Shown in pieces: positions 16,496 through 41,972 of a stretch of DNA of 64,000 nucleotides (position 1 is its first letter; each line of letters begins with the position of its first letter). Location: NCBI RefSeq assembly GCF_008727925.1, contig NZ_VTWT01000009.1:124001-188000 (forward strand), written 5' to 3'. The notes below the pieces were generated by a model. It saw only the letters and a list, made by a program, of their open reading frames with translations, was not told the origin of the DNA and did not search any database. Made by a program: the position numbers and the translations under genes. The DNA comes from Adhaeribacter soli (GTDB taxonomy: Bacteria; Bacteroidota; Bacteroidia; Cytophagales; Hymenobacteraceae).

Positions 16496-17656
16496 TTAGT
16501 ACATGAGCACCTTTTCGATCCCGAGTTTAGCTACTGCCAGAACATCTGCAATACATTTGCCTGCATTGCCATCGCCATAGAGGAAACTGCTTTTAAACTG
16601 GCCCTGCCCCATCTGTTGCCGGACTGCCGCTATAATGGCATCTTTGTCGTAAGGTACATCAAGCACATTTGCTCCCCGGTCACGTCTGTTCTGGCGATTC
16701 CCCAGATTTACTACCGGCACCCCTAAATAAGAACACTCGCGGATGCCAACGCTTGAGTTTCCGATCAGGCAAAGACTATTACTGAGAATGCGAAGAAAGT
16801 CAGTGCCTTTCATATTTTTAAAGAAATGTACCTTATTAGATCTATTCCTTTCCCTGAAAATACGAATAGCGCGTGAAGTACCATCAGAACCGGCATCTAC
16901 GTTTGGCCAGAAAAGCATAGTAGGCATATCCAGTTCCAGTATAGCATTTAAGGTCGCGTTTATTTCTTCCTGCGCATGCTCATGCGAAGTGGTTACCGGA
17001 TGCTGCATGACCACCAGGTATTTACCCGGCTCAATTATAATATCAGCCCCAACCCCTCCGTATTTTTTAATAGGATCGAAATCCAGTACCGGATTTGCTT
17101 TTACTTCAGCAGCCAAATCAATTGACGGGCAACCGGTAACGTATACACTATCCGGATTTTCACCCATTTTTATTACCCTTTCGGCAGCCATTGGGGTGGT
17201 TACCAGATGAATATCAGACAACTTGGTAATGGCATGCCGTACCTTTTCGTCAATATTACCGGTTACTTCCCCGCCTTGAATATGAGCGAGGGGAATATTC
17301 ATATAAGAGGCCGCAATCGCCGTAGAAATGGTTTCGTAACGGTCGGCAATGGTTACCACTACATCCGGCTTCAGATCGTCGAACACGGAGGCTAATTCTG
17401 AAATACCGATCCCGGTTGTTTTAGCCATGGAGATCAGGTTTTCGCCTTCCAGTACCGTATAGATCTTCCGGGTAATTTCAAGACCGTCTTCTTCTATATA
17501 TTTTACAACGCTGCCATACCGGTCGAGCAAAGCGGAGGCAGCTACTACCAGCTGCAGGTTTAAATCCGGGTGTTCGCGAATAGCAAGTAAAGCGGTTTTA
17601 ACTCTGCTGTAACTAGGGCGGGCGGTAATAACTACACAAACATTTCTTTTTCTCAT
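16496..17656 (-). CDS. neuC: UDP-N-acetylglucosamine 2-epimerase (hydrolysing) NeuC
   Basis: A 386-residue hydrolysing epimerase that converts UDP-GlcNAc to ManNAc and UDP, the first step of sialic acid synthesis. It has the opening ITARPSYSRVK near residues 10-20 and the GGEVTGNIDEKVRHAITKLSD block near residues 127-147, whose conserved His and acidic residues are typical of NeuC and LegG. GNSSVGIRE near residues 301-309 is the UDP-binding loop. It overlaps neuB by four bases (ATGA), so both are translated together. A LegG activity on UDP-diacetamido-bacillosamine is an alternative; no dedicated bacillosamine genes are seen next to it. Confidence 0.88.
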   Translation of the reverse strand: MRKRNVCVVITARPSYSRVKTALLAIREHPDLNLQLVVAASALLDRYGSVVKYIEEDGLEITRKIYTVLEGENLISMAKTTGIGISELASVFDDLKPDVVVTIADRYETISTAIAASYMNIPLAHIQGGEVTGNIDEKVRHAITKLSDIHLVTTPMAAERVIKMGENPDSVYVTGCPSIDLAAEVKANPVLDFDPIKKYGGVGADIIIEPGKYLVVMQHPVTTSHEHAQEEINATLNAILELDMPTMLFWPNVDAGSDGTSRAIRIFRERNRSNKVHFFKNMKGTDFLRILSNSLCLIGNSSVGIRECSYLGVPVVNLGNRQNRRDRGANVLDVPYDKDAIIAAVRQQMGQGQFKSSFLYGDGNAGKCIADVLAVAKLGIEKVLMY

Positions 17657-18666
17657 ACTTCAATATCCTCAGCAGTGAGGAAGGCGTACTTTTCTAAATT
17701 CTTTTTCAGGCGTTTCCCAATTACGGATTTATAATCTGTGGCAGGGAGCCCGTGGTTTGCCGGTTTTTTACTTTCCAGATCTTCTACCGTAAGCACATGG
17801 CCAGCAGGCAAAGCCTTGTTTATAGCAAGCGATTTTTCAAATATCTTTTTTAGTTCGGCGTATTGCTGATTCTGGCTTTTATCGATGGTGCAACTCCGGG
17901 ATTCGGAAATAAACCGCACGCCGCGTACCAGTTCCTTAATTTCTTCGGGGGTAAGCGATGCCACTGTATCTGGCCCGAACATTTTTTTATGGAAAACAGC
18001 ATGCACTTCAACCAGTTCGGCTCCTAAAGTTACCGCTGCCAGCGATGGGAAAATGGTACCGGAATGGTCGGATAAACCAACCCGCAAACCATATTTTTCC
18101 TGCATTTCCGTAATCACGTTCAGCCCAATCTGATCCGGCCGGGTTGGGTAAGCGGTCGTGCACTGCATCAGCGACAATTCGTTGCCAAAGGGTTTCAGAA
18201 AATTCAGGGTACGTTCTATTTCGGCATAGGAACCCATTCCGGAAGAAAGGATAATGGGTTTGCCGGTTCGGGCAATCTTTTCCAGCATTAAGAAGTTGCT
18301 TAACTCGCCGGAGGCTATTTTATACCGTTTTACCTGGAGGCGTTCCAGCAGATCTACGGCTGCCTGAGAAAAAGGAGAACTCATAAATTCCAACCCTACC
18401 CGCTCACAATGTTCCTTTATTCCTGCCCACTGTTCTTCCGAGAACTCCATCCGTTCCCAGTAATCGTACCGCGTGGCATCCTCATACGAGAACTTTACCC
18501 GAAAGGGTTCAAAGATACTGCTCTCTGCTTCGGCAATATGGGTCTGAAATTTTATAACATCTGCGCCGGTTTCGGCCACAGCATCTATATAGGAGTGCAG
18601 AATTCCCAGGCTTCCTTCATGGGCCTGGGCTATCTCCACTATTACTTCTACGGTATTAATCTGCAT
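17653..18666 (-). CDS. neuB: N-acetylneuraminate synthase NeuB
   Basis: A 337-residue sialic acid synthase that condenses phosphoenolpyruvate with ManNAc (or a related hexose) to a nine-carbon acid. The TIM barrel starts with EIAQAHEGSL and ends near residue 255; GLSDHSG near residues 195-201 and KIASGE near residue 115 are conserved family blocks. The last 60 residues (LPAGHVLTVEDLESKKP to the end) are the SAF/antifreeze-like domain that caps the active site. It overlaps neuC by four bases. The partner neuA is divergent across a 129-base spacer. Substrate stereochemistry (Neu versus Leg or Pse) cannot be set from motifs. Confidence 0.9.
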   Translation of the reverse strand: MQINTVEVIVEIAQAHEGSLGILHSYIDAVAETGADVIKFQTHIAEAESSIFEPFRVKFSYEDATRYDYWERMEFSEEQWAGIKEHCERVGLEFMSSPFSQAAVDLLERLQVKRYKIASGELSNFLMLEKIARTGKPIILSSGMGSYAEIERTLNFLKPFGNELSLMQCTTAYPTRPDQIGLNVITEMQEKYGLRVGLSDHSGTIFPSLAAVTLGAELVEVHAVFHKKMFGPDTVASLTPEEIKELVRGVRFISESRSCTIDKSQNQQYAELKKIFEKSLAINKALPAGHVLTVEDLESKKPANHGLPATDYKSVIGKRLKKNLEKYAFLTAEDIEV

Positions 18667-18795
18667 TAAAATTTCTTCCGGGGGGAATCAGCCGGAAGGC
18701 TACACCCACAATATTACTATATATTTGCGTAAAATTAGCTTTAACAGCAATTTTAGTTTTAGGCTAAAAAGGCTATCGGTTTCAGAAATTAGATC

Positions 18796-19497
18796 ATGGA
18801 GAATGTACTGGCAGTAGTTCCGGCCCGGGGTGGGTCCAAAGGAGTGAAGGATAAAAACATCTATTTAATTAATGGGAAAGCCCTGCTCTGCTATGCTGTT
18901 GAAACTGGTCTGAAATGCCCGCACGTAACGGAAACCTACATCAGTACTGACTCTGGCTTATACGAAGAAATTGCCAAAAGTTGCGGTGCAGAATCTGTTG
19001 GTTTAAGAAGTCCGGAATTAGCGTCCGATTCCGCTAAAACAGCAGATGCCCTGATCGACCTTGTTACCCGATTGCAATCTCTGGGCAAAAATTTTGATTA
19101 TGTTGTATTGCTGCAACCTACTTCTCCGGTTCGCCGTCCGGAGGATATTAGTAACATGCTCAACATCCTCAGATCACGGCCTGACGCCTCAGGCATTGTG
19201 TCAGTTTCCCGGTTGATCGAGCCTCACCCTTATAAATTAAAAAAGATTACTCCGGAGGGATTTCTGAATAGTTTTATTGACGGCACTTCATCAGAGATAC
19301 CCAGACAGCAAATGCCACCTGCTTTTAAATTAAACGGAGCCATTTACATTGTAAGAACGGAATTTATGCTGCAGAACCGGAAATTACTGGATAATAGAAC
19401 TTTACCCTATGAAATGGAAGAAGGAGTTAATATCGATTCGGCAGCGGATCTGGAATACCTCCATTACCTGGTTTCCACAGGCAAAATAAATTTATAA
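18796..19497 (+). CDS. neuA: CMP-N-acetylneuraminate cytidylyltransferase NeuA
   Basis: A 233-residue cytidylyltransferase that activates nonulosonic acid as the CMP-sugar. The nucleotide-binding motif PARGGSKGVKDKN near residues 9-21 and LQPTSPVRRPED near residues 105-116 are diagnostic. It is the only plus-strand gene between 134 and 47253, divergent from neuB. TATATTTG at 18720-18727 fits the -7 promoter consensus, but no -33 element is present at the right distance. It converges on the glycosyltransferase at 19624 with a 126-base gap. The product is probably used by the polysialyltransferase-like protein at 13672-14964. Confidence 0.92.
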   Translation: MENVLAVVPARGGSKGVKDKNIYLINGKALLCYAVETGLKCPHVTETYISTDSGLYEEIAKSCGAESVGLRSPELASDSAKTADALIDLVTRLQSLGKNFDYVVLLQPTSPVRRPEDISNMLNILRSRPDASGIVSVSRLIEPHPYKLKKITPEGFLNSFIDGTSSEIPRQQMPPAFKLNGAIYIVRTEFMLQNRKLLDNRTLPYEMEEGVNIDSAADLEYLHYLVSTGKINL

Positions 19498-22281: not shown

Positions 22282-23352
22282 CTAAGCCTTCGCCAGTGCC
22301 TTTTCGCCTATTACGAATTCTTCGATAATTGCAACAATGGCTTCCGCTGCATGTCCATCGCCGTATAGATCTTTAAATTCTTTTGCCTCGTCATTTTCCA
22401 GAATTGAACGAAGAGATTCCAACTCCTCAAATACCAGCATATTACAACCGCCATCTAAAGTTTCCACCCATTCGGTTTCTTTCCGGATGGTGATGCAGGG
22501 TTTCTTCAGCATATAAGCCTCTTTCTGGATCCCGCCGGAATCGGTGATAATATAATCGGCAAAAGTCTGATAGGAAAGACACGCTTCATAACCCACCGGA
22601 GGAATAAAAATAATATTATCGAAGGTATCAAGATCTATCATCCATTTCTTCAAGTTATTCTGGGTCCGGGGATGAATAGGAAAGACCACTTTTTTGCTTA
22701 ACCCATTCAATATCCCTAGAATATAAACCAGGCGGTCTTTTTCGTCTGTATTGTAAGGGCGGTGTAAGGTAACAAAGTAATAGCTTTCATTCAGCTTCTT
22801 TTCCAGAAACGGCTTCATCAGATTCAAGGAGTCGCACATTACATCTCCCACCCGGTAAACCCCTTCTTTAATACCTTCGTTGGCTAAATTGGCAATGGCG
22901 CTGGAAGTGGGTGCAAACAGGAGCTTAGATAAGTGATCCGTTAAAACCCGGTTAACTTCTTCCGGCATTTCCCTGTTAAAGCTCCGTAACCCCGCTTCTA
23001 TATGAACGATCGGAATATTAAGCTTTGCCGCTGCCAGCGCACCGGCTAGTGTAGAGTTGGTATCGCCGTACACTAAAACCACATCGGGAGACTCCCGGAT
23101 AAGGATATTTTCAATTTCCTGAAGCATGATGGCCGTCTGGGCACCGTGCTGGCTGGCCTTACCAATATTCAGCATATAGGTTGGTTTAGGCATTTTTAAT
23201 TCCTCAAAAAACACCTGGCTCATATTCTGGTCGAAATGCTGACCGGTATGAATGGTGATGGAATCAAACTTACTCTGAAGGGCTAAAGCTACCGGAGAAT
23301 GCTTAATAAACTGAGGCCGCGCCCCGATAATGGAGACTATTTTTGGTAACAT
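22282..23352 (-). CDS. wecB: UDP-N-acetylglucosamine 2-epimerase (non-hydrolysing), WecB/WbpI-like
   Basis: A 356-residue epimerase that interconverts UDP-GlcNAc-type and UDP-ManNAc-type sugars. IIGARPQFIKHSP near residues 8-20 and VHIEAGLRSFNREMPEE near residues 117-133 are the substrate-binding blocks, and TDSGGIQKEA near residue 270 is the UDP site. In the Wbp pathway the homologue WbpI epimerises UDP-GlcNAc3NAcA to UDP-ManNAc3NAcA. Because the WbpB, WbpD and WbpE homologues lie at 31.5-34.5 kb, a WbpI role is plausible. Plain ManNAc supply (WecB) is the alternative; motifs do not separate the two. Confidence 0.85.
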   Translation of the reverse strand: MLPKIVSIIGARPQFIKHSPVALALQSKFDSITIHTGQHFDQNMSQVFFEELKMPKPTYMLNIGKASQHGAQTAIMLQEIENILIRESPDVVLVYGDTNSTLAGALAAAKLNIPIVHIEAGLRSFNREMPEEVNRVLTDHLSKLLFAPTSSAIANLANEGIKEGVYRVGDVMCDSLNLMKPFLEKKLNESYYFVTLHRPYNTDEKDRLVYILGILNGLSKKVVFPIHPRTQNNLKKWMIDLDTFDNIIFIPPVGYEACLSYQTFADYIITDSGGIQKEAYMLKKPCITIRKETEWVETLDGGCNMLVFEELESLRSILENDEAKEFKDLYGDGHAAEAIVAIIEEFVIGEKALAKA

Positions 23353-23646: not shown

Positions 23647-25071
23647 TTACTTAAATTGCTTTAAAGGCAGCAACTCTTTTACTTTCTTTCTGAAAACCAA
23701 TAATAAGCCCGCAAATAGAACGGCCGCAATCCCTATTTTTTCCAGCAGGTTGAGGTTTAACTGCAGCATGCCGGAAAACACCAACGTGCAAAGAAGAAAG
23801 AATAAGATTATCCGCTTGAAGTTATAAGGAATAAAATAAAGCCTTTGGGCTTTATACGTTAGTATTATACACATTACTATGTTGCCAACAATCATGGCTA
23901 AAGCCGCACCCTCCTTTCCAAATTGAGGAATAAGCATAAAGAACAGAATTACGGTTACAAGAGCGCTAATAGGCATAGAAACGGCATACGATATATTATT
24001 TTTCGCAATGCTGTTGGCGATCGCCAAAATATTAGGCACGCCCATCATAACCACGTTAATGGCAAGCAGGCCAATTATTTGCCAGGCATCTATGTAGCTT
24101 TCCCGGGTGAAAATAATTAAAATATCTTTGGCAAAGAAAAGCAGCAAAAAAGCACAGGAAAACCCTAAAACACAGTACCATTCAAAAACTTTGCTATACG
24201 TTCTCCGGGCATTTTCTTCTTTGGAAATTGATAAGGCAAATGGGGTCCAGGCCTGAAAAAAGGCCCAGGTAACCAAACTCAGAATATTTGAAATGCTGGC
24301 GCCAACCTGGTACAGCCCGATCTCGGCATTATCCTTCACTAATAATTTTAAGAAATAGATAGAAGCCATGTTCATAACCCAATAAAGCAGGGAGGCCGGC
24401 ACCAATGGCAACGAAAACCGGAGCATATCCTTTAGCCGCACGTACGAAAAGGAGCCCGGTTGCACCCATTTCCCTAAAAGCAGCAGCATGAATATGAAGC
24501 CCATAAAGCCCGCAATTAACTGCGAATAAAAAACGCCCTGTACCCCAATTCTTAAATAAAGAATAAACACAATATTAAAGCACAGAGTAGTAGCCAGAAG
24601 GATCAGCGAATAAGTCATAGCTTTTAATGGCTGGTGCAGCATTCTGCACCAGATATTGACCACCTTCTGAAAGCCCACAAAAAGCAAATTCAGGCCAATT
24701 AAAATAAATAGCAGGCTATACGCTTTTGTATCAAAAAACAATAAAGAAAGCTGGCTGCTGAACGCAACTACAATAAGCATTGCGACCAGTCCGGTACCTG
24801 CTAAAAAGACCAGCCAGGAATTGAAAGTAACTTTCCTTTCCTTCTCATCCGGTTTATCCCAGAACCAGACTGCGGCCGAATTATCTAAACTAAAAATCAG
24901 GAGAATATTTAAAAAGGCTGACGTAGTGGTCAGAATGGAAATAACGCCGTAATCGGCCGGTTCAAAGACCTTCGTATAAAGGGGAATTAAAAAGATGCTG
25001 ATGAAGGAGGAAATGATCCCGGATAGCCCATAAATGAAGGTATCCTTAAAAAGTGATTTAAACTGCTTCAT
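23647..25071 (-). CDS. Oligosaccharide flippase (Wzx-like), copy 2
   Basis: A 474-residue polytopic protein with about twelve to fourteen membrane segments. The N-terminus FIYGLSGIISSFISIFLIPLYTKV is typical of the polysaccharide transporter (RfbX/Wzx) family. It shares overall layout with the flippase at 12371-13672 but is not a close copy. It overlaps the next downstream-orientated gene boundary by one base with the glycosyltransferase at 25071-26306, so both are coupled. It is visibly AT-rich, as expected for genes exchanged between O-antigen loci. It should export one of the repeat units assembled here. Confidence 0.87.
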   Translation of the reverse strand: MKQFKSLFKDTFIYGLSGIISSFISIFLIPLYTKVFEPADYGVISILTTTSAFLNILLIFSLDNSAAVWFWDKPDEKERKVTFNSWLVFLAGTGLVAMLIVVAFSSQLSLLFFDTKAYSLLFILIGLNLLFVGFQKVVNIWCRMLHQPLKAMTYSLILLATTLCFNIVFILYLRIGVQGVFYSQLIAGFMGFIFMLLLLGKWVQPGSFSYVRLKDMLRFSLPLVPASLLYWVMNMASIYFLKLLVKDNAEIGLYQVGASISNILSLVTWAFFQAWTPFALSISKEENARRTYSKVFEWYCVLGFSCAFLLLFFAKDILIIFTRESYIDAWQIIGLLAINVVMMGVPNILAIANSIAKNNISYAVSMPISALVTVILFFMLIPQFGKEGAALAMIVGNIVMCIILTYKAQRLYFIPYNFKRIILFFLLCTLVFSGMLQLNLNLLEKIGIAAVLFAGLLLVFRKKVKELLPLKQFK

Positions 25072-26306
25072 TAATATGAATTCATTAGCCCTCTTCTAAC
25101 CGCATTTTTAACTACGGCCGGATCTCCCTTAAAAAAGCGGCCAGCCACCTTCGCGCTCATTTCGAGATTTTCCCTACTTAACACCACTCCCTGAGGCAAT
25201 TCGAATAACCGCAGATAAAAATCCGGGGTATATTGCTGATGCTCCCGGACCAGGCTTGAAATTATTTGCTGAGCCACTTTTTCCGGCCGGTTGTTTTCCT
25301 CAACATACGCCTTCCCCTTAAAGGCCAGATGAGCCTTATTTGGATCGTCGAGAAGCTTTTTTAACTGATCATAAATGTTTTCCGGATTGATATTGATAAC
25401 GGGCGGGTTAAAAATATCCTTGTAAACATTTAACGTTCTGGTTGCTACAATACAACCTGCTGCCATCGCCTCCAAGCTTAATACTCCAGGGCCATGCAAC
25501 AGAATCTCGTCAATGAGAATATCGGCATTGGTTAGTTCCTTTAGCAGTTCGCGGTTAGGCAGATTCTGAAGGAGGCGAAATTCAAATCTGTATCCATCAG
25601 CCTGGAGCTTCTCCACTGCCTTACAGATTATGGAAGTTCCTTTTATTCCGGATCTGGACGGCGCGTGAACAATTACGGGAACTTCCCTCCCAGGCACCTG
25701 GAACCCTATCTTCTCCATACCCTTTAAGGGAATATGCAAATGATTATAGCCTCTTATCGCCAGTCCTTCCTGATCGGGAACTGAAAAGATCACATCTGCA
25801 AAAAGCTCATGAAGTCTGATCTTTTTAATTTTTTCATTGAGATCTTCTTCATGGAAAAAGCGCTCCCATAAACTTACATCTTCGCTAAACTCCTGCTTAT
25901 AAGCGGCAATATGGCGCACATCACTTCCTACGTGCAGGCAAACAATCTTTTTATTGGCAGCTTTTATCCTTTTAAATATTTTCTCCTCCGGAAGCCAGGG
26001 CCGCCAGATAAAAATAAACAGATCGTAGGCCTTTATCAGATCATCGGTGATGCGCTCTAAGGCCAGCCTGGAAGTAAAATTATCTGTATGCTGTAAAATG
26101 GCTTTAACCGGCCCCGGTATCTTTTTATCCTGGAAATTCAGCTTAGCTTTGAAAAAAGGCTCCTGAACAATATCATATTGCACATCCGGATAAAACTTAT
26201 TCCTTTCCAGCACAAAAGTAGTAACCTCATGGCCGGCATCTCTAAACCCTTCCGCTAAGCCAGACAAGATGGAGGCAATATCAAAACAACCTATAAATAC
26301 TTTCAC
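25071..26306 (-). CDS. Glycosyltransferase, GT-B fold
   Basis: A 411-residue protein with two Rossmann-like halves. The N-terminus KVFIGCFDIASILSGLAEGFRDAGHEVTTF carries the acceptor-side glycine loop. The C-terminal half has VIVHAPSRSGIKGTSII near residues 212-228 and LLHGPGVLSLEAMAAGCIVATRT near residues 269-291, where E-x-MAAG matches the GT4 donor-binding region. It overlaps hisF2 by four bases (ATGA) on the 5' side and the flippase on the 3' side. Placed beside the acetamidino genes, it may transfer the amidinated sugar; this is inference. Confidence 0.78.
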   Translation of the reverse strand: MKVFIGCFDIASILSGLAEGFRDAGHEVTTFVLERNKFYPDVQYDIVQEPFFKAKLNFQDKKIPGPVKAILQHTDNFTSRLALERITDDLIKAYDLFIFIWRPWLPEEKIFKRIKAANKKIVCLHVGSDVRHIAAYKQEFSEDVSLWERFFHEEDLNEKIKKIRLHELFADVIFSVPDQEGLAIRGYNHLHIPLKGMEKIGFQVPGREVPVIVHAPSRSGIKGTSIICKAVEKLQADGYRFEFRLLQNLPNRELLKELTNADILIDEILLHGPGVLSLEAMAAGCIVATRTLNVYKDIFNPPVININPENIYDQLKKLLDDPNKAHLAFKGKAYVEENNRPEKVAQQIISSLVREHQQYTPDFYLRLFELPQGVVLSRENLEMSAKVAGRFFKGDPAVVKNAVRRGLMNSY

Positions 26307-27064
26307 CTGGATATTGCTTCTTCTAATTTGTTCCGGTCAGGGAAATTAACTAACACCCCCAGGCCTTTTGCCTGATAAACAACCATACTACCTAAGGCAA
26401 CAGCAGAAGCTCCTGTTTCTACCGCCTTAACGATATCGTTAATTTGTCCGGCTCCTCCATTGGCGATCACCGGAATATTCACTGCTTCTGTTATTTGTTT
26501 AATTAAAATTGTATCATAGCCACTCCAGGTACCATCATGGTCCATGGAAGTGAGCAGTATCTCGCCCACGCCGTTTTGTTCCAGCTTTTTTGCCCAGGTA
26601 ACCGGGTCAAAATCGTGTTGCCGCTTTCCGTCGTTGCTGTAAACTTTATATTTCCCCCAGAAATTCTTTTTTACATCAATAGAGCCTACCACACTCTGTA
26701 CCCCGCTGTGATCTGCAATCTCCCGGATTATTTCCGGATGGTCGAAAGTAACGGTATTCAGGACGATCTTTTCAAACCCAATAGATAATATTTGCTGGGC
26801 CATGGCTGCTGAGGTTACTCCGCCGCCGTAAGAAAGGGGCATAAAGCATTCATCTGCTATTTGTTTCAGCAGCTCCAGGTTTGGCTTCCTTTTTTCCAGC
26901 GTGGCCCGGATATCCAGAAAGCAAAGCTCATCTACTTCCAGTTCATTAAAGATCCGGACGGTATTTATTGGATCGCCGATATAGCCAAACTTATTGAACT
27001 TAACCGTTTTAACCAGGCTGTCTCCGATAAGTTGCAGGCAAGGTATAACCCTGGTTTTAAGCAT
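26303..27064 (-). CDS. hisF2: HisF2/AglZ-like protein of acetamidino sugar synthesis
   Basis: A 253-residue TIM barrel clearly homologous to HisF, the cyclase half of imidazole-glycerol-phosphate synthase. In HisF the catalytic residues are Asp11 and Asp130; here position 11 is Gln (IPCLQL), while the second Asp is kept in GSIDVKK near residue 128. Loss of Asp11 argues against histidine biosynthesis. It is followed by a HisH-like glutaminase (one-base gap) and an N-acetyl sugar amidotransferase, the same trio as hisF2-hisH2-wbpG in Pseudomonas O-antigen loci. Its expected job is to pass ammonia from HisH to the amidotransferase that forms an acetamidino group. Confidence 0.85.
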   Translation of the reverse strand: MLKTRVIPCLQLIGDSLVKTVKFNKFGYIGDPINTVRIFNELEVDELCFLDIRATLEKRKPNLELLKQIADECFMPLSYGGGVTSAAMAQQILSIGFEKIVLNTVTFDHPEIIREIADHSGVQSVVGSIDVKKNFWGKYKVYSNDGKRQHDFDPVTWAKKLEQNGVGEILLTSMDHDGTWSGYDTILIKQITEAVNIPVIANGGAGQINDIVKAVETGASAVALGSMVVYQAKGLGVLVNFPDRNKLEEAISR

Positions 27065-27065
27065 A

Positions 27066-27680
27066 TTACAATTCAGAAAAATTCTTAAACAGTTTCATCC
27101 CGAATTTATGGGACTTTTCAGGATGGAATTGGGCACCAAAGATGTTTTCTCCGTTGGTAATTACGGAATCAAATTCATGCCCATAAGTGGTGCGCATCAA
27201 TACATCCATTTCTTCGTCTGCTTTTACAAAATAAGAATGAACGAAGTAAAAACGGGGGTCAGGAGGAAAATCTGCAATTAAGGGCGATGCATTAACCTGC
27301 TTTACCAGGTTCCACCCCATGTGCGGCACTTTTAAATTCTGAGTGCGGGTAAAAGAGAACTTAATAGTTTTGCCTTTTATCCACCCAAGGCCCGGCAGTA
27401 CACCCTCCTCGCTGCAGTCAGTAAGTAATTGCATGCCGAGGCAGATCCCCAGTACCGGAACCTTATCTTCCAATGCTTTTTTATTCAGGATTTCTTCAAA
27501 TCCACCCGCCTTAATTCTGGACATGGCGGCATCGAAGGCCCCTACCCCGGGCAACAGGATCTTGGTGGCATCGGCTATCTCATTGAGGTTATCCGTAACT
27601 TTTGCCTCCACGCCAACTTTTTTAAACATGTTAAGCACCGAACCCAGATTGCCCATGCCATAATTAACGATCGTAATCAT
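27066..27680 (-). CDS. hisH2: HisH2-like glutamine amidotransferase
   Basis: A 204-residue class I glutaminase. The nucleophile C80 is in GICLGMQ, and the triad is completed by H186 and E188 in QFHPEKS. The oxyanion region PGVGAFD near residue 44 is that of HisH. It would hydrolyse glutamine and deliver ammonia through the neighbouring HisF-like barrel. It is packed between hisF2 (one-base gap) and wbpG (one-base gap), with no other his gene in the window. This supports a glycan role rather than histidine synthesis. Confidence 0.87.
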   Translation of the reverse strand: MITIVNYGMGNLGSVLNMFKKVGVEAKVTDNLNEIADATKILLPGVGAFDAAMSRIKAGGFEEILNKKALEDKVPVLGICLGMQLLTDCSEEGVLPGLGWIKGKTIKFSFTRTQNLKVPHMGWNLVKQVNASPLIADFPPDPRFYFVHSYFVKADEEMDVLMRTTYGHEFDSVITNGENIFGAQFHPEKSHKFGMKLFKNFSEL

Positions 27681-27681
27681 G

Positions 27682-28824
27682 TTAACTATCTTTTCGCGGG
27701 AAACAGTATTTCAAATAAAAACTCATCGGCACCCTGTTGGATTCCGCCATTACTTTAAAGAAAGGACGCCATTTTTCGAACCGCTTTTTATAAGTTTTAA
27801 AATCTTTCCAGCTCCGTTTTATGCCGCTATTCATTATATTATCATACTCGAGATCCGTAAGGCCCATTCGCTTTTTAACATACTGAACAATCTCCGGGTC
27901 TACTACTATTGGAGTATTATAGATCTTCAGAGCTTCCTCCCGCGGTATTTCGCCTCGCCTGGCTGCTGCTGCCAGACTCCAGTTGCGGTTATCGATCCCG
28001 AACTTCTGGGGATTATAAACTGTATGCAAAAAACCCGTTGCCCGGTTTTCCAAATGATGGCCTCCGTAGTACTGCCAGCCGGTATGTTCGGTAAGCCAGC
28101 TCATAGCCTCCTTCTTCGAATAATCCATATACCATAAAGGCCGGATAAACTGCACCTGATGGAAAAGAATTGACTTCAGAAACTTAAAAAAGGTCATATT
28201 CGGGTAGGTCTTCATGGGAAACCTGCCGTACTTTTTATGAATATCCTCAATGTACTTACCATCGAAGTAGTTATTTCCCTGCGGTGAAATGCCTTCTGCC
28301 TGGTACGAATGTCCTTCTAATACATATTTAATATTATATTTAGCGCAGGCATCTCGCAATACCTGGGCAAAACCAATATCCGTAGAAGCATCGAATTCCG
28401 GGACCTGAGCCATAAAAAAAGACCGGAAAATGTCATCTGCTTCCTTATTATCGATTACGTAAGTGTATAGATCAGCATTACAATACTTCGTAACTTTTCT
28501 GATATTTTCTGTAGAAATGGCTGTATTCCAGGTATTATCATAATGTACTGCCAAGGGTCTTAAACCCCATTCAACTGCCTTACATAATAAGTAAGAAGAA
28601 TCTGTTCCTCCGCTTACTCCCAGAATACAATCATATTTTTTGCCTTTCCCTTCTGCTTTTATTTTTGCAATAATACTTTTTAAAGCTTCTTCTCCTTTTG
28701 CTGTACCGGGCTGATACTGGGCGTTCAGCATTTCTACCTGCCGACAATAGCTACAAACCCCATCCTTATCAAATTCAATATTGGGAATGGTTTCGTCGTA
28801 AATGCACTTTGAGCAGATTTTCAT
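27682..28824 (-). CDS. wbpG: N-acetyl sugar amidotransferase (WbpG/PseA family)
   Basis: A 380-residue enzyme of the ATP-pyrophosphatase fold. A zinc-ribbon-like N-terminus has C4-x2-C7 and C24-x2-C27, followed by the PP-loop SGGTDSS at residues 71-77, which binds ATP and activates the acetamido oxygen. With ammonia from HisH2-HisF2 it would convert an N-acetyl group of an amino sugar to acetamidino. Homologues act on ManNAc3NAcA (WbpG) or pseudaminic and legionaminic acids (PseA/PtmG). It overlaps the hexapeptide acyltransferase gene by four bases. Which sugar is modified here is open, since both a Wbp-like and a sialic pathway are encoded. Confidence 0.88.
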   Translation of the reverse strand: MKICSKCIYDETIPNIEFDKDGVCSYCRQVEMLNAQYQPGTAKGEEALKSIIAKIKAEGKGKKYDCILGVSGGTDSSYLLCKAVEWGLRPLAVHYDNTWNTAISTENIRKVTKYCNADLYTYVIDNKEADDIFRSFFMAQVPEFDASTDIGFAQVLRDACAKYNIKYVLEGHSYQAEGISPQGNNYFDGKYIEDIHKKYGRFPMKTYPNMTFFKFLKSILFHQVQFIRPLWYMDYSKKEAMSWLTEHTGWQYYGGHHLENRATGFLHTVYNPQKFGIDNRNWSLAAAARRGEIPREEALKIYNTPIVVDPEIVQYVKKRMGLTDLEYDNIMNSGIKRSWKDFKTYKKRFEKWRPFFKVMAESNRVPMSFYLKYCFPRKDS

Positions 28825-29414
28825 TTAGCAGAATACTTAAAGTTTATTTTTCCTTCATCATCAATTAATACCGAGCCTGTAACTTTACCAGGTTGCCCCA
28901 TAACAATTGAATTATCAGGTACATCTTTGTTAATTAAGGAAAAAGCTCCGATAACCACGTTATTCCCAATGGTAGTTCCTTTGGTAATTATGGCCTGCGG
29001 CCCTACATACACATTGCTGCCAATGGTAACCGGCTCTCTTTCTATTGGCATTGCTTTACCGGATAATGTTTGTTTTACATTATCGTGCGTATAAATATGA
29101 ACTCCTGCAGAAATCGTACAACAATCTCCGATTACCAGATGCCCGGATCCATCAAGAATTGTGTTGGGCCCAATCCAGCATTCGCTTCCAATTTTCACCT
29201 GCCCCAATACTAACGAGCTGTCGTAAATATTTGTACCTTTTCCAAAGCCTAATAATGCTGCTCGTTGCCATCTGTCAACAAAAAGGTCAGGTAAGGGCGG
29301 AAGCCGATCCAGTTCCGTTATGAACTTATTGCTAAGTCTCTTGTAGATTTCTTGCAAATTGACGTAAAGCTCCCTGAGTTCTTCATTATCATCGAAAGCT
29401 GAAGGTCTGTCCAT
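28821..29414 (-). CDS. Left-handed beta-helix (hexapeptide) acyltransferase
   Basis: A 197-residue acyltransferase. The first 55 residues are helical, and the remainder shows hexapeptide repeats (IGSECWIGPNTILDGSGHLVIG and similar) that build a left-handed beta-helix. H113 or so in IYTHDNVKQ fits the catalytic His of maltose/galactoside-type O-acetyltransferases. It overlaps wbpG by four bases and is preceded after 7 bases by an NAD-dependent epimerase. It probably O- or N-acetylates a sugar of the same branch. It is distinct from the WbpD-type protein at 32734-33315. Confidence 0.82.
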   Translation of the reverse strand: MDRPSAFDDNEELRELYVNLQEIYKRLSNKFITELDRLPPLPDLFVDRWQRAALLGFGKGTNIYDSSLVLGQVKIGSECWIGPNTILDGSGHLVIGDCCTISAGVHIYTHDNVKQTLSGKAMPIEREPVTIGSNVYVGPQAIITKGTTIGNNVVIGAFSLINKDVPDNSIVMGQPGKVTGSVLIDDEGKINFKYSAK

Positions 29415-29421: not shown

Positions 29422-30375
29422 TTAAAGTAAGGTTTTCATCCATTCAGCCGTTTTTAGCACCCCTTCTTCCAGATCAACTTTAGCCTTAAACCCAAGAACC
29501 TCTTCGGTTTTCTTTACGGAAGGTATCCGGATAGCAATATCTGCTGATAATGGTGGATCGAAAACGATCTGAGATTCAGATTTTAGCACCCTGGCCACTG
29601 TTTGCGCCAGACCCAGAATCGTTATTACTGCCCGCGCATTGCCTAAGTTGAAACTTTCTCCTACGGCTTTCGGGTCTTCAATACACCTGATCAGACAGTT
29701 CACAAAATCGTCTACATAGCACCAGGCTCTGATCTGGCTGCCATCGCCATCAATGTGAATGGTTTCGTTCTTTAATGCCTTTTTAATAAAGATCTGAATT
29801 GCGCCTTCACCTGTCTGCCCAGGTCCGTAAACATTGAATGGGCGCACTGTTACAACCGGCAGCTTGTACTGGTTATAATAGGCATGAGCCAGGTGTTCTC
29901 CTGCCAGCTTACTTACGGCATAGGTCCAGCGGGCTTCACCGGCAGACCCGGAAACGGTCTGGTCGCTTTCCGTTGACTTAAATGCCATAGACCCAAAGAC
30001 CTCGGAGGTAGAAAAATCTACGAACCTGTCTTTTACGCCATTTATTCGGGCGGCTTCTAGCGCATTAGCGGTCCCGATCATATTTACCTGCATTGTTCTT
30101 ACAGGATTTTTTATTACAGTATCAATGCCGGCAATACCAGCGGCATGAACCACTATATCTGCCCCTTTCATAGAAGAAGTAAGCAGCTCCAGGTCCAGAA
30201 CATCCCCTTTAATAATGGTAAGGTTCGGATGGCCGGCCACTTCACTTGAGGTTAAAGTATCGCGGTGAAAATTATCGTAAACAATGATTTCATTTTCGCT
30301 GATATAATGTTTTATCAACGTATTGGCAATAAAGCCGGCGCCACCGGTAATAAATATTCTTTTATTCTGTAACAT
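29422..30375 (-). CDS. NAD-dependent sugar epimerase/dehydratase (SDR)
   Basis: A 317-residue extended short-chain dehydrogenase. The cofactor loop [12 protein letters not shown] is near residues 11-22. The active site has STSEVFG (Ser near residue 122) and Y-x3-K in [10 protein letters not shown] near residue 152. [15 protein letters not shown] near residues 177-191 is the UDP-sugar contact. Homologues epimerise at C4 or C5 or dehydrate UDP/dTDP sugars; the exact reaction is not decided by visible residues. It is one base from the aminotransferase upstream, so they are likely sequential steps in one nucleotide-sugar pathway. Confidence 0.85.
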
Positions 30376-30376
30376 T

Positions 30377-31483
30377 TTATCTGGTTAACTTATTAAGTAC
30401 GCTGGCAATCTGCCGGATCTGTTCTTTCTGTAGCTTTTCGTATATCGGAATGGCCAGCCCGGACTTGAAAGCCCGTAAAGCGTTCGGGAATTCTTTGGCA
30501 GAATCCAGTCCGTATTTTTTCAGGTAATACTGCTGCGCCGGAATGCACTGCGCACCATAATTGGTCCCGATGCCTTTCTCCCGCAATTCAGTTATTACTT
30601 TGTCCCGATCGAAATCGCTATCTAAAACCACGTGAAAAGTCTGCCAGGTGTGGTTCCGATCAGCGGGCACAACCGGTAGCTTTATGCCGGAATGGTTTAT
30701 TTCGTTAAAGTAAACTTCGGCCAGTTCGTTTTTATAGTCAATAATTTTTAGCAACCTTTTCAGCTGACTATTTACCAGCGCAGCCTGAAAATCGGTCATG
30801 CGGTAATTGAAACCTGCAGCTACGAATTCCATTTTCCCGTGCTGCATTTCTACCCCATGGTTCCGCAAAATTCTTACTTTGGCCGCTAGGGCATCGTCTG
30901 AGGTAGTCAGTATTCCGCCTTCGCCGGAGGAAACAGCCTTGCGGGGATGAAAGGAAAAAGAACCGAAAATACCGAAGGAGCCGGTATGTTTTCCGTTCTG
31001 CGTTGCCCCTAAAGCGCATGCTGCATCTTCAATTACAGGTAAGCCGTGCTTTTCTGCCAGCTTCATTACAGCTTCAATATCGCAGGCCAGACCGAACTCA
31101 TGTACCGGCATAATGGCTTTGGTTTTGCTGGTAATTTTAGCTTCAATGGCGGCTACTTCAATATTAAAAGTATCAGTATCCACATCCACAAAAACGGGGG
31201 TTGCTCCAACCAGCTCTACTACATTAGCGGTAGCCACATACGAAAGCGCCGGTATAATTACCTCATCGCCGGGCCCAATACCCAGCGCCACTAAGGCCAG
31301 GTGCAAGGTTGCTGTACCGTTCGAAACTGCAATGGCATTTTTGGTTTGGGTAAAAGTAGCTACGCCTGCCTCAAAGTCCTGCACGTTCTGCGCCTGCACC
31401 AGCATGCCGGACTTCAAAACTTCCACCACGGCGTTTATGTCTTCATCCCGAATATCCGGGGAAGTTAAAGGGATGAATTCCAT
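30377..31483 (-). CDS. DegT/DnrJ/EryC1-type sugar aminotransferase, copy 1
   Basis: A 368-residue PLP enzyme. Lys182 in [14 protein letters not shown] is the Schiff-base lysine, and [11 protein letters not shown] near residue 150 gives the Asp that binds the PLP pyridine. It would transaminate a keto-sugar nucleotide using glutamate. It overlaps the start region of wbpB by 19 bases and runs into the SDR epimerase gene. Two aminotransferases are present in this cluster; the other (33321-34451) lies beside the WbpD homologue and is the better WbpE candidate. This one, paired with the epimerase, may make a 4-amino sugar. Confidence 0.87.
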
Positions 31484-33320: not shown

Positions 33321-34451
33321 TTAAGCGCTAAAAAATCCGGTTACGGCGGTTGAAATCAGGTTAAGCTGGTCATCTGTCATTTCGGTGTGAATTGGAAGAG
33401 ACAATACTGACGAACACAGCGCTTCGGCAACCGGGAAATCTTCCGGTTTGTATTTTTCGTTTTTAAAAGCTTCCTGCGCATATAAGGGCAAGGGATAATA
33501 CACCATGGAAGGAATTCCATTTTTCTCCAAATGTGCTTTCAACGCATCGCGCTTCCCATCCTTTACCATTAATGTGTACTGGTGAAAAACGTGCGTGGAA
33601 TTTGCCTGACGGCGTGGGGTTTGCAATCCTGAAATGCCGGAGAAAGCGTTATCGTAATAGGTGGCGGCCGCATTGCGGCTGGCAGCATAACGGTCCAGAT
33701 GTTTCAGTTTCACATTCAGAATACCGGCCTGCAGGGTATCGAGCCGGGAGTTTACGCCTACCATCTGGTGATAATATTTTTTCGACTGACCATGGTTCGC
33801 GATCATCCGGATCTGTTGCGCCAGGGCATCGTCGTTGGTGTACATAGCGCCGCCATCGCCGTAGCAGCCCAGGTTTTTGGAGGGGAAGAAGGAGGTGCAG
33901 CCTACCGACCCGATGGTACCGGCACGCATTACCTTACCATCGCTGAAGGTGTATTCGGCTCCCAGGGCTTGGGCAGTGTCTTCGATCACAAACAGATTAT
34001 GCTTTTCCGCCAGGGCCATGATTGGCTCCATATCGGCGCATTGCCCAAACAAATGCACCGGAACAATGGCTTTTGTCTTATCCGTAATAGCAGTTTCAAT
34101 GTCTTCAGCCCGCACGTTAAAGGTATGCAGGTCGCATTCCACCATTACCGGCGTAAGCCCCAGCAACGCAATAACTTCGGCGGTTGCTACATAAGTGAAG
34201 GTTGGTACAATTACTTCATCACCCGGCTTTAAACCTAATGCCATCATGGCAATTTGCAGGGCGTCGGTACCGTTTGCGCAGGGAATTACGTGCTTTACAC
34301 CCAGGTACTTTTCCAGGTTTTGGGCAAATTCTTTTACCTGTGGACCGTTAATGAAAGCTGTGGTTTCGAGGCAGTGCGCAATGGCGGCATCTACTTCATT
34401 TTTTATTTTTAAATATTGACTTTTCAAGTCAACCATTTGGATAGGCACCAT
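33321..34451 (-). CDS. wbpE: DegT-type aminotransferase, WbpE-like
   Basis: A PLP aminotransferase of 376 residues from the chosen start at 34451 ([10 protein letters not shown]), because the family begins with the DLKxQ segment; an upstream ATG at 34538 would add 29 residues without homology. Lys192 in [14 protein letters not shown] is the Schiff-base lysine, and [11 protein letters not shown] near residue 155 holds the PLP-ring Asp. WbpE/WlbC aminate UDP-3-keto-GlcNAcA. The WbpD homologue follows after 5 bases and the WbpB homologue lies just beyond, which supports the assignment. It begins the minus-strand module that runs to 22 kb. Confidence 0.86.
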
Positions 34452-34646
34452 GAAAACTAAATCGTATTTTGAATTGGTTAATTGAGCAGATAATTTAAAC
34501 CTAACACCCCTTGTAACAAGAAGACGAAAAACAAACACTTCTAATTTAAACCACTAGCAGACTTCCTGGCATTTGCTGTTCACCATGTACATCATGGCAA
34601 TTTACGAATTTACATTGTTTTGCCTGACCTTTAACGTAATAAAATT

Positions 34647-35933
34647 CTACCGGATCAGGCCGGCGCCAATTGTTTCGAAGCTCCGCGGACAAATGAAAAT
34701 GAGGCTGCCGGTCCCCTTGTTAACCAGGTAAGGACCGTAATAAAGCGGTTCTTCTGTTTGCAGCAATACTTCCCCGATCTCATTCATTTCCAGACCGTTT
34801 TGAGCTGGCATTTGCTTCAAGGTAGCGACATCGGTTTTGTGTACAATTTCCAGAACCTCCGCCTTCACAAACCTGGTAGTATGTTTTACCAGCAAAGGTT
34901 GTCCGACTAAAAGCTTTCCGGGACCAAACCAGCATACTTCCACTTTTATTTTATCCGAAATGAGAGGCAGATCACCTGTTGCTGAAAGCAAATTTCCCCT
35001 TTGGAGCGGTTTTCCTTCATCCAGCACCAGGCTGACCGAGTTGGTCGCCACTGCTTCCTCCAGGGTTTGGTCCATTAGCTGGATTTTCAATACTGTTCTT
35101 TCTTCTCCTCCCGGATGTACCTGAACTTTATCTCCAACTTTAATCCGCCCGCTTTCAACTTGTCCGGCTAAAACTACGTTATCCTGAACAGGTAAAACTA
35201 ACTGCACCGGGAACCGAAAAGGTAATTGCTCTAATTCAGCGGCAACATTTACTTCTTCCAGTTGTTCCAGCAGGGTTTTGTCCTTGTACCAGGGCATTGA
35301 AGCTGATGGCTGAACCACATTGTCGCCCTTCAGGGCGCTAACCGGTACGCAGCTAATAGAAGGAATGTTTAACGTAGCGGTAAAAACCTTAAAAGCTGCA
35401 ACTAGATCTTCGAATACCGCTTCTTTAAAGCCAACCGTATCCATTTTATTTACGCAAAGGATCAGGTGTTTGAAACCCAGCAACGAGGCCAGCAAGGTAT
35501 GGCGGTAAGTTTGCTCCGTTAAGCCGTTGCGGGCATCGACCAGGATAAGCATCAGGTCGGCGTTGGAAGCGCCGGTTACCATGTTGCGGGTATACTCCCA
35601 ATGCCCGGGCGTATCGGCGACAATAAATTTGCGCTTCGGGGTGCTGAAATAACGGTATGCTACATCGATGGTAATGCCCTGCTCCCGTTCCGCCTGCAGC
35701 CCGTCAGTAAGAAAAGAGAGGTCAAGAAAATCTTTTCCTTTATTCTGACTGGCCCGGGTAACAGCTTCCAGCTGGTCTTTCATTACAGCTCTGGAATCGT
35801 AAAGCAAACGCCCGATCAGGGTACTTTTCCCGTCGTCTACGTTGCCGGCAGCCAGGAAACGGAGTACATCTGTTGGAGTTTCAGTACTTAAAAGGTTAGT
35901 TTTTTTGCCTTCCGGCATACGGTTTTGCTGCAT
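34647..35933 (-). CDS. cysN: Sulfate adenylyltransferase subunit 1 (GTPase) CysN
   Basis: A 428-residue EF-Tu-like GTPase from the chosen start at 35933. That ATG begins 5 bases after the cysD stop, while the longer frame to 36041 would run through cysD. The G1 loop GNVDDGKST, G3 DTPGHWEY and G4 NKMD are present. It drives ATP sulfurylase: sulfate plus ATP to adenosine 5'-phosphosulfate, with GTP hydrolysis. There is no C-terminal APS kinase fusion; a separate cysC lies upstream. It lies 110 bases downstream of nothing on this strand but before the wbpE gene. Context suggests PAPS supply for assimilation or glycan sulfation. Confidence 0.93.
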   Translation of the reverse strand: MQQNRMPEGKKTNLLSTETPTDVLRFLAAGNVDDGKSTLIGRLLYDSRAVMKDQLEAVTRASQNKGKDFLDLSFLTDGLQAEREQGITIDVAYRYFSTPKRKFIVADTPGHWEYTRNMVTGASNADLMLILVDARNGLTEQTYRHTLLASLLGFKHLILCVNKMDTVGFKEAVFEDLVAAFKVFTATLNIPSISCVPVSALKGDNVVQPSASMPWYKDKTLLEQLEEVNVAAELEQLPFRFPVQLVLPVQDNVVLAGQVESGRIKVGDKVQVHPGGEERTVLKIQLMDQTLEEAVATNSVSLVLDEGKPLQRGNLLSATGDLPLISDKIKVEVCWFGPGKLLVGQPLLVKHTTRFVKAEVLEIVHKTDVATLKQMPAQNGLEMNEIGEVLLQTEEPLYYGPYLVNKGTGSLIFICPRSFETIGAGLIR

Positions 35934-35937
35934 AAAT

Positions 35938-36840
35938 TTAAAAGTAGCCTTCCAGCTTACGATCTTCCATGGCGGTTTCGGAACGAAGGTCATCGGCGCG
36001 GGTATTTCGTTCGGTGGTCTCAGAAACGCTGATCTCCGCAATTATTTCAGCAATGGTTTCCGCCCTGGATTCTACCGCTCCGGTACAGGTAGCATCGCCC
36101 ACGGTCCGGAACCGCACCTGCTTTTCTTCCGGGATTTCGCCGGGCAGTATATTTATAAATTCGGTATGCGCCAGTAAACTTCCCTGCCGGTTAACAACCT
36201 TGCGGTTGTGAGCAAAATAAAGGTCCGGAACCTCCAGATTTTCCTGCTGAATATAGCGCCAAACGTCTAGTTCGGTCCAGTTGCTGAGCGGAAAAATACG
36301 AAAATGCTCGCCCGGTAAATGCAGGCCGTTAAATAAATTCCAGAGTTCGGGGCGTTGGTTGTGCGGGTTCCATTTTCCGCTGGCATCGCGGTGCGAGAAG
36401 AAACGTTCTTTAGCCCGGGCCTTTTCCTCGTCGCGGCGGGCGCCGCCAAATGCTGCATCGAACCCGAATTCGGCAATGGCATCCAGCAAGGTTACTGATT
36501 GTTGCCGGTTGCGGCTGGGGTTCAGGCTTTTTTCTTCTTCCACCCTACCGTTCCGGATCGAATCTTCTACTTCCCGGACTATGAGTTCCATACCGGTTTT
36601 TTGTACCAGTTTATCCCGAAAAGTAATGGTTTCCGGAAAGTTATGGCCCGTATCGATGTGCAGCAAGGGAAAAGGCGGCAAAGCCGGCCAGAAAGCCTTT
36701 CGAGCCAGATGCACCAGCACCAGCGAATCTTTGCCGCCGGAAAAAAGCAGCACCGGCTTTGCGCATTGGGCCACTGCTTCGCGGATCACAAAAATAGCTT
36801 CGGATTCGAGATAGGTTAAGTAATTATTTGCGGCAGGCAT
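35938..36840 (-). CDS. cysD: Sulfate adenylyltransferase subunit 2 CysD
   Basis: A 300-residue ATP-pyrophosphatase-type enzyme, the usual CysD length. LLFSGGKDSLVLVHLA near residues 31-46 is the PP-loop, followed by HIDTGHNFPE near residues 61-70. It forms the catalytic half of ATP sulfurylase with CysN. It lies between cysC (29 bases upstream) and cysN (4 bases downstream), in the order C-D-N on one transcript. No PAPS reductase or sulfite reductase gene is in the window, so the use of the activated sulfate is not shown. Confidence 0.94.
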   Translation of the reverse strand: MPAANNYLTYLESEAIFVIREAVAQCAKPVLLFSGGKDSLVLVHLARKAFWPALPPFPLLHIDTGHNFPETITFRDKLVQKTGMELIVREVEDSIRNGRVEEEKSLNPSRNRQQSVTLLDAIAEFGFDAAFGGARRDEEKARAKERFFSHRDASGKWNPHNQRPELWNLFNGLHLPGEHFRIFPLSNWTELDVWRYIQQENLEVPDLYFAHNRKVVNRQGSLLAHTEFINILPGEIPEEKQVRFRTVGDATCTGAVESRAETIAEIIAEISVSETTERNTRADDLRSETAMEDRKLEGYF

Positions 36841-36869
36841 TGAAAACGGTATAGGATAGGCTTAAAAAC

Positions 36870-37430: not shown

Positions 37431-37588
37431 AATGGTATTGTGGAGGTCATTAGAAAAGGGATTCACGGGAGGCTGTTTTTGAAAGAAGTGATATTTTGGG
37501 TTTTTATTCCGGAAAAGGTACTGTTTTCTGAAACTCAGGTTACAGCCTTTTCGGAACAAAGATTTTAAATAAAATTCAGAATTAAGGG

Positions 37589-41864: not shown

Positions 41865-41972
41865 AATAGCCGGCAAAAATACGAGATATTGGGGAAATTA
41901 GAATTTATATTTTGAAATCAGGCAGTTCTTTTTAACAGAACGGTATGGAACGCAAACGAAAAAGCCGGGTTG

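What the first reader, a model, noticed from the sequence alone, without database searches (positions are those of the whole stretch)
26303..28824. HisF-like protein with Gln in place of catalytic Asp11 beside HisH and WbpG homologues
The HisF homologue keeps the barrel and the second catalytic Asp but has Gln at position 11, so imidazole-glycerol-phosphate cyclisation is unlikely. It is packed with a glutaminase (C80, H186, E188 intact) and an N-acetyl sugar amidotransferase (SGGTDSS loop). This is the acetamidino-forming trio of Pseudomonas O-antigen and related loci (established for hisH2-hisF2-wbpG), here in a Bacteroidota locus that also encodes sialic acid enzymes.
Basis: partly seen in the sequence, partly recalled or inferred. 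Interest (0 to 1): 0.75.

Follow-up and report, generated by a model that had tools for sequence, protein, structure and literature searches.

The report
Sugar-amidine enzyme trio, no histidine pathway
Three neighbouring genes, two of them descended from a histidine-making enzyme, very probably add a nitrogen to a surface sugar; this is a known kind of enzyme set, but here it sits in a bacterium whose genome lacks the histidine genes we looked for, which suggests that the set does not need that pathway.

Summary
Window 26303-28824 (minus strand) holds HisF-, HisH- and WbpG/WbuX-like genes, with Gln at HisF position 11. The HisF passes NCBI's AglZ/HisF2 acetamidino-modification model (340.9 bits, cut-off 310) and fails the HisF model. 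The WbpG homologue passes WbuX and folds like Legionella NASAT 8WEX. Loss of Asp11 is a family hallmark: 0 of 85 relatives have Asp (75 Leu, 6 Gln). The ammonia-gate residues and Asp130 are kept.

New facts. (1) The genome (estimated 100% complete) and its sister species have no canonical HisF, HisA or HisG, although 35/35 other same-family genomes have HisG. (2) Position 98 is Glu in 84/85 AglZ proteins but Asp in 35/38 true HisF; D98E hyperactivates Thermotoga IGPS. (3) The trio lies in one operon with WbpE/D/B, an aminotransferase, a decarboxylase-type SDR (absent from 58 relatives) and an acetyltransferase. A homologous block elsewhere lacks the trio. The predicted product, a triamino-pentose with one acetamidine, we did not find described. 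The substrate is inference.

The parts
26303..27064 (-). AglZ/HisF2-type barrel, Gln11, Asp130, ammonia-gate residues R5/E46/K99/E167 (Tm numbering), Glu98
   Evidence: NF038364 340.9 bits over cut-off 310; TIGR00735 hisF 212, below cut-off 294.6; residues; AF2 pLDDT 89.6, best PDB hits HisF/IGPS
27066..27680 (-). HisH-type class I glutaminase, Cys80-His186-Glu188 intact
   Evidence: TIGR01855 229.5 bits; triad intact here and in 77/77 homologues
27682..28824 (-). WbpG/WbuX-type N-acetyl sugar amidotransferase (PP-loop SGGTDS, tetracysteine motif)
   Evidence: TIGR03573 227.9 bits over 203.2; AF2 pLDDT 91.4, best fold match 8WEX Legionella NASAT, E 1.8e-14
28821..29414 (-). Hexapeptide N-acetyltransferase, overlaps the amidotransferase start by 4 bp; likely makes the acetamido group that is amidated
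   Evidence: best PDB match 8VR6, 179.9 bits; directly upstream of NASAT (gap under 100 bp) in 13 of 80 related loci
29422..30375 (-). NAD-dependent SDR with STSEVFG motif, decarboxylase-type; proposed UDP-uronic acid decarboxylase
   Evidence: 8VR2 446 bits; aligned with human UXS1 STSEVYG; E<=1e-90 match in none of 58 relatives and in 3 other genomes of 395 in the phylum
30377..31483 (-). PLP sugar 4-aminotransferase (ArnB/PseC-like), proposed partner of the SDR
   Evidence: 9BGP/8VR3/8VR5 262-268 bits; adjacent to the SDR in L162 and L163
31465..32505 (-). WlbA/WbpB-type UDP-sugar 3-dehydrogenase
   Evidence: 3Q2I/3Q2K 186-188 bits
32734..33315 (-). WlbB/WbpD-type 3-N-acetyltransferase
   Evidence: 3MQG 215 bits; homologue in 40 of 59 genomes of relatives, own included
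33321..34538 (-). WbpE-type 3-aminotransferase (true start probably internal)
   Evidence: WbpE 3NYU 350 bits, match begins at residue 33
25071..26306 (-). Glycosyltransferase overlapping the HisF-like gene by 4 bp; possible user of the modified sugar
   Evidence: weak Glycos_transf_1 match, 21.1 bits, below cut-off 26.4
22282..23352 (-). Non-hydrolysing UDP-GlcNAc 2-epimerase, WecB/WbpI-like
   Evidence: TIGR00236 283.7 bits over 210
16496..19497 (.). NeuC/NeuB/NeuA-type nonulosonate genes in the same glycan locus (16496-17656 -, 17653-18666 -, 18796-19497 +); alternative substrate source
   Evidence: TIGR03568 371 bits over cut-off; NeuB 294.8 bits, below cut-off 399.7

Best explanation
The trio is a three-subunit, glutamine-fed N-acetyl sugar amidotransferase. 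HisH hydrolyses glutamine. The HisF-like barrel, having lost the cyclase residue Asp11, acts as an ammonia conduit and HisH partner. The WbpG/WbuX-like subunit uses ATP (to AMP and PPi) to activate an N-acetyl group of a surface-glycan sugar and replaces its oxygen with NH, giving an acetamidino group. Shown here: family identity, intact HisH and PP-loop sites, conserved ammonia gate, loss of Asp11, co-occurrence, operon packing, absence of canonical HisF, HisA, HisG and HisD from this genome. Inferred: channelling, NH3 transfer to the third subunit, working without PrFAR, Glu98 as a built-in glutaminase activator. The sugar is less certain. From gene order I propose UDP-GlcNAc(3NAc)A (WbpA elsewhere in the genome, WbpB/E/D here), then decarboxylation and 4-amination (29422, 30377), N-acetylation (28821), then amidination, probably of that new acetamido group. 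The confidence below is for the amidotransferase reading; for this particular sugar it is about 0.4.
For: Curated family models. Position 11 is never Asp in 85 AglZ-type proteins but Asp in 38/38 true HisF; R5 83/85, E46, K99, E167 and D130 85/85; Glu98 84/85 against Asp98 35/38. Asp11 essential and D98E hyperactive in Thermotoga HisF (PMC8115485). True HisF form one clade, 100/100 support. HisH in 77 and NASAT in 75 of 80 loci; HisH triad 77/77; PP-loop in 71 of 71 full-length NASAT. No canonical HisF/HisA, HisG or HisD in a genome rated 100% complete; HisG in 35/35 other same-family genomes. NASAT fold matches 8WEX. Transposon insertions in the WbuX, HisF2 and HisH genes of a Sphingomonas surface-polysaccharide cluster change colony morphology (PMC11340318). 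Substrate: PDB matches, AcT-NASAT adjacency, homologous WbpE-D-B-AT-SDR block without the trio in L162, WbpA.
Against: No glycan structure or assay. D98E activation was measured with ProFAR present, and 3 of 38 true HisF carry Glu98 naturally, so PrFAR-free activation is not demonstrated. Phosphate-site residues (G82, N103, S225, G177) are largely kept, so a ligand may still bind. WlbB is widespread in relatives that lack the trio, so WbpB/D/E may mainly serve another glycan such as the T9SS linking sugar. The decarboxylase reading rests on one motif and homology. The organism and reaction of the 8VR entries could not be verified here.
Confidence: 0.87

Rival explanations
1. Same trio, other substrate: the 3-acetamido group of UDP-(Glc or Man)NAc3NAcA, as in P. 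aeruginosa O5 (ManNAc3NAmA), the SDR/aminotransferase genes serving another sugar.
For: WbpE, WlbB and WlbA homologues lie in the same operon, a WecB/WbpI-type epimerase at 22282, WbpA elsewhere; WbpG does this in P. aeruginosa (PMC10607449).
Against: WlbB occurs in 40 of 59 genomes, nearly all without AglZ, so these genes are not tied to the trio; the acetyltransferase next to NASAT is not WlbB but the 8VR6-like one.
Confidence: 0.3
2. Same trio, amidinating a nonulosonic acid made by the NeuC/NeuB/NeuA-type genes at 16.5-19.5 kb (Leg5Am/Pse5Am-like).
For: Leg/Pse amidines are known (Legionella, Campylobacter, Tannerella); the sister species has NulO-type genes with its own divergent trio.
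Against: The Neu-type genes are about 8 kb away, one on the opposite strand, outside the operon; NeuC passes the UDP-GlcNAc epimerase model, which suggests a Neu5Ac-type path; only 5 of 80 trio loci have NeuB nearby.
Confidence: 0.2
3. HisF-HisH is a working IGP synthase for histidine and the WbpG homologue is a chance neighbour.
For: Full-length homology to HisF/HisH; Asp130 retained.
Against: Asp11 lost; fails the HisF model; no HisA, HisG or HisD in the genome; conserved linkage to NASAT.
Confidence: 0.02
4. The trio is a decaying, horizontally acquired remnant without function.
For: Variable glycan locus; the sister species carries a non-orthologous trio (46% HisF, 37% NASAT) in the corresponding locus.
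Against: All catalytic motifs intact, overlapping or 1-bp gene packing, no stops.
Confidence: 0.04

Closest known systems
P. aeruginosa O5 WbpG-HisH2-HisF2 (ManNAc3NAmA)
   Same: Same three protein families; WbpE/D/B-type genes in the same locus
   Different: Here an 8VR2/8VR3/8VR6-like SDR-aminotransferase-acetyltransferase set lies between them, and the genome has no canonical HisF, HisA, HisG or HisD
E. coli O145 WbuX/WbuY/WbuZ (L-FucNAm)
   Same: WbuX model passed (TIGR03573)
   Different: WbuZ model TIGR03572 just missed (289.4 against cut-off 299.7); no FucNAc pathway noted next to the trio
Legionella pneumophila NASAT, PDB 8WEX
   Same: Best fold match, PP-loop and Zn-type tetracysteine motif
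   Different: Only 17% identity
Sphingomonas LM7 cluster B (PMC11340318)
   Same: Aminotransferase, WxcM-type acetyltransferase, MviM dehydrogenase, SDR, WbuX, AglZ/HisF2 and HisH in one surface-polysaccharide cluster; mutants alter colony morphology
   Different: A different organism and gene order; its amidine was not reported in the passages read
Imidazole glycerol phosphate synthase HisF-HisH
   Same: Fold, ammonia gate, glutaminase triad
   Different: Cyclase Asp11 lost, ten near-fixed differences, no histidine pathway
Enzymes of PDB 8VR2/8VR3/8VR5/8VR6 (from memory possibly the Psychrobacter cryohalolentis 2,3,4-triacetamido-2,3,4-trideoxy-L-arabinose pathway; not verified)
   Same: Best or near-best PDB matches of three adjacent genes, 8VR2 at 446 bits
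   Different: Here followed by the amidotransferase trio

Membership tests
AglZ/HisF2 (NF038364) | score above curated cut-off 310 | tested here: met
   340.9 bits
AglZ/HisF2 (NF038364) | next to HisH-type and WbuX-type genes | tested here: met
   1-bp spacing; conserved in about 75 of 80 loci
AglZ/HisF2 (NF038364) | non-Asp at cyclase position 11 with the ammonia gate conserved (derived here from 85 members) | tested here: met
   Gln11; R5/E46/K99/E167
AglZ/HisF2 (NF038364) | acetamidino product in the glycan | not testable with these tools
   needs MS/NMR
N-acetyl sugar amidotransferase WbpG/WbuX (TIGR03573) | model score above cut-off 203.2 | tested here: met
   227.9 bits
N-acetyl sugar amidotransferase WbpG/WbuX (TIGR03573) | PP-loop SGGxDS and CxxC...CxxC | tested here: met
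   SGGTDS at 71; Cys 4, 7, 24, 27
N-acetyl sugar amidotransferase WbpG/WbuX (TIGR03573) | fold of 8WEX | tested here: met
   Foldseek E 1.8e-14, TM 0.64
Imidazole glycerol phosphate synthase HisF (TIGR00735) | score above cut-off and Asp11 | tested here: not met
   212 against 294.6; Gln11
Imidazole glycerol phosphate synthase HisF (TIGR00735) | histidine pathway in the genome | tested here: not met
   HisA, HisG and HisD absent
P. aeruginosa Wbp pathway | WbpA, B, E, D homologues in the genome | tested here: met
P. aeruginosa Wbp pathway | amidine at C3 of ManNAc3NAcA | not testable with these tools
   needs MS/NMR
UDP-uronate decarboxylase (SDR 29422) | T-S-E in place of the T-D-E of 4,6-dehydratases | tested here: met
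   STSEVFG aligned to UXS1 STSEVYG; the dehydratase motif is from established knowledge
UDP-uronate decarboxylase (SDR 29422) | CO2 release from UDP-GlcNAc(3NAc)A | not testable with these tools
   needs an enzyme assay

The most novel reading that the evidence does not exclude
The AglZ/HisF2 family is a decommissioned IGP synthase: cyclase Asp11 lost, ammonia gate kept, and the glutaminase-activating D98E change nearly fixed, so that HisH runs without PrFAR. In this organism, which lacks the histidine genes searched for, it feeds an amidotransferase that makes a previously undescribed acetamidino derivative (probably at C4) of a 2,3,4-triamino-2,3,4-trideoxypentose.
Probability: 0.27. Interest if true: 0.62.

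Novelty: new member of a known kind. Interest (0 to 1): 0.42.

Why it matters
In the papers I could read, the role of HisF2/HisH2 in sugar amidination is assigned from genetics and gene neighbourhoods; whether the HisF-like barrel is only an ammonia conduit, and how HisH is switched on without PrFAR, appears open. A genus that seems to lack the histidine pathway yet keeps such trios is a clean system in which PrFAR is unlikely to be the activator. The near-fixed Glu98, which hyperactivates Thermotoga IGPS, makes a specific, cheap test possible. The operon also predicts a sugar that I found no description of.

Tried and rejected
Gln11 as a special catalytic innovation: rejected; position 11 is Leu in 75 of 85, Gln in 6, never Asp. 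IGP synthase function: rejected on residues, model score and missing pathway. WbpB/D/E as specific partners of the trio: weakened, since WlbB is common in relatives without it. Constitutive glutaminase through loss of HisH Tyr138/Lys181 (as in the constitutive mutant 2WJZ): by eye both residues are kept, so probably not the route. The paper behind 8VR2-8VR7 was sought and not found in the library. IGPD (HisB) and HisI/HisC were not searched. One literature query failed on syntax.
Full report
CHECK. The three genes are present at the stated coordinates on the minus strand with 1-bp spacing. Gln11, Asp130, the HisH triad C80/H186/E188 and SGGTDSS are all there, and the WbpG homologue also has the four N-terminal cysteines. 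The neighbouring genes are equally tight: HisF overlaps the downstream glycosyltransferase gene by 4 bp, and NASAT overlaps the upstream acetyltransferase by 4 bp. From 34538 down to about 25071 all genes run on one strand, mostly with gaps of a few bases or overlaps (the largest gap, 228 bp, is between 32505 and 32734), so they look like one operon.

IDENTITY. The HisF-like protein scores 340.9 bits on NF038364 (AglZ/HisF2 acetamidino modification, cut-off 310), 289.4 on WbuZ (cut-off 299.7, just missed) and 212 on HisF (cut-off 294.6, failed). The WbpG-like protein scores 227.9 on WbuX (cut-off 203.2). AlphaFold models (pLDDT 89.6 and 91.4) match HisF/IGPS structures and Legionella NASAT 8WEX best. 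In a tree of 95 proteins the true HisF form one clade with 100/100 support. The window protein sits with Pedobacter, Flammeovirgaceae, Balneolota and Ignavibacteriota relatives (L034, L035, L036, L040), which share Gln11; the bootstrap had not fully settled (residues).

WHAT THE FAMILY HAS CHANGED. Over 85 AglZ-type proteins and 38 true HisF (28 of them from genomes that carry a trio), position 11 is Leu 75, Gln 6, Ser 2, Thr 2 in AglZ and Asp 38/38 in HisF. The ammonia-gate residues R5, E46, K99, E167 and also K19, F23 and D130 are essentially invariant in both. Near-fixed differences are at 11, 20, 28, 39, 43, 44, 79, 98, 224 and 228. Position 98 is Glu in 84/85 AglZ and Asp in 35/38 HisF. 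In Thermotoga IGPS, D98E drives the complex into the active conformation and the ProFAR-stimulated glutaminase turnover is 179 per minute against 63 for wild type; Asp98 contacts HisH Asn12, which touches the catalytic Glu (PMC8115485). The equivalent Asn is invariant in 77/77 AglZ-partner HisH. My inference: the family lost cyclisation, kept the conduit, and carries an activating residue. Limits: the measurement was with ProFAR, and three true HisF (L178, L181, L185) carry Glu98 naturally. The gate assignment (R5, E46, K99, E167) is established knowledge of IGPS, not tested here.

GENOME CONTEXT. The genome (4.97 Mb, 16 contigs, estimated 100% complete) has one full-length His_biosynth protein, this one, and no HisD or HisG. 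The sister species lacks HisG too and has only its own AglZ-type protein. All 35 other same-family genomes have HisG. IGPD, HisI and HisC were not searched. Elsewhere 25 of 30 trio genomes keep HisG, so the loss is a property of this genus, not of the system.

SUBSTRATE. Upstream are homologues of WbpE (350 bits to 3NYU), WlbB/WbpD (215 bits to 3MQG) and WlbA/WbpB (188 bits to 3Q2I). WbpA is on another contig (50% identical to a WbpA-type protein). Between these and the trio lie an aminotransferase, an SDR and an acetyltransferase whose best or near-best PDB matches are 8VR3/8VR5 (with 9BGP), 8VR2 (446 bits) and 8VR6 (180 bits). The neighbouring codes suggest one deposited pathway; I recall the Psychrobacter cryohalolentis triacetamido-L-arabinose work but could not verify it. 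That O-antigen sugar itself is documented in PMC8040287. The SDR has the STSEVFG motif, aligned with UDP-glucuronate decarboxylase STSEVYG, instead of the TDE of 4,6-dehydratases (established knowledge). In L162, from another family of the same class, a WbpA-type gene lies two genes upstream of WbpE-WlbB-WlbA-aminotransferase(62%)-SDR(79%) without the trio, which supports the idea that these act in series and that the trio is an add-on. In L089, a gammaproteobacterium, the order is WbpA-type, WlbA, WlbB, WbpE, WecB-type, aminotransferase, SDR(72%), acetyltransferase, NASAT, HisH, HisF. The acetyltransferase is directly upstream of NASAT in 13 of 80 loci from several phyla, so the acetyl group it adds is my preferred amidination target. 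In papers held I found acetamidino groups named at C2, C3, C5 and C7 but no '4-acetamidino'; the library is partial.

ALTERNATIVES. WlbB occurs in 40 of 59 genomes of relatives, nearly all without AglZ, and the genome has at least 150 T9SS sorting-domain matches. So WbpB/E/D may well make the T9SS linking sugar (Wbp/Vim pathway, PMC7468200) and be shared or unrelated. The sister species keeps the same flank (AsnB, Ugd, UXS, WbpE, WlbB, WlbA at 80-91% identity) but has a different cassette, with NulO-type genes and a divergent trio in another order: a variable surface-glycan locus.

VERDICT. The trio is a known kind; what is added is the genus-level loss of histidine genes alongside retained trios, the near-fixed Glu98, and a specific predicted sugar. 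Known precedents in the phylum: L-FucNAm in Flavobacterium columnare (PMC3210612), Pse5Am in Tannerella (PMC6120980) and unexplained hisF2/hisH2 copies in Chryseobacterium and Maribacter (PMC8305728).

Noticed in passing
G000 and G001 (own genome and same-genus genome): No HisF/HisA (other than the AglZ-type protein) and no HisG in either; no HisD in G000 (not searched in G001). 35/35 other same-family genomes have HisG: an apparent genus-level loss of histidine biosynthesis.
   Followed up: partly
window 34647-37559: CysN-, CysD- and CysC-like sulfate-activation genes (read from sequence, not scored) sit inside the glycan locus; in the sister species (L154) the UXS and WbpE genes are only about 320 bp apart and these genes are missing there.
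   Followed up: no
L154/L155 (G001 C11:436000-475999): Same locus flank at 80-91% identity but a different cassette: NulO-type genes and a divergent HisH-HisF-NASAT trio, suggesting a swapped surface-glycan module.
   Followed up: partly
window 7097-8968 and 39960-41876: Two AsnB-like amidotransferases closest to the XrtA/PEP-CTERM-associated family TIGR03108 (510 and 515 bits, below cut-off 817), perhaps related to the WbpS uronamide enzyme type.
   Followed up: no
L055:6692-7840: A Saprospiraceae NASAT 71% identical to the window's, although its HisF is only 57% identical: the subunits may have different histories.
   Followed up: no
L178, L181, L185 (canonical HisF loci): Three true HisF from trio-bearing genomes (Deltaproteobacteria-type) carry Glu at position 98, otherwise an AglZ mark.
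   Followed up: no
L093 (Chryseobacterium gleum), NASAT-like match at 6901 on the opposite strand, HisH at 9393: The hisF2/hisH2 pair reported without explanation in PMC8305728 for this species has a NASAT-like gene nearby on the opposite strand, so it is probably an acetamidino trio too.
   Followed up: partly
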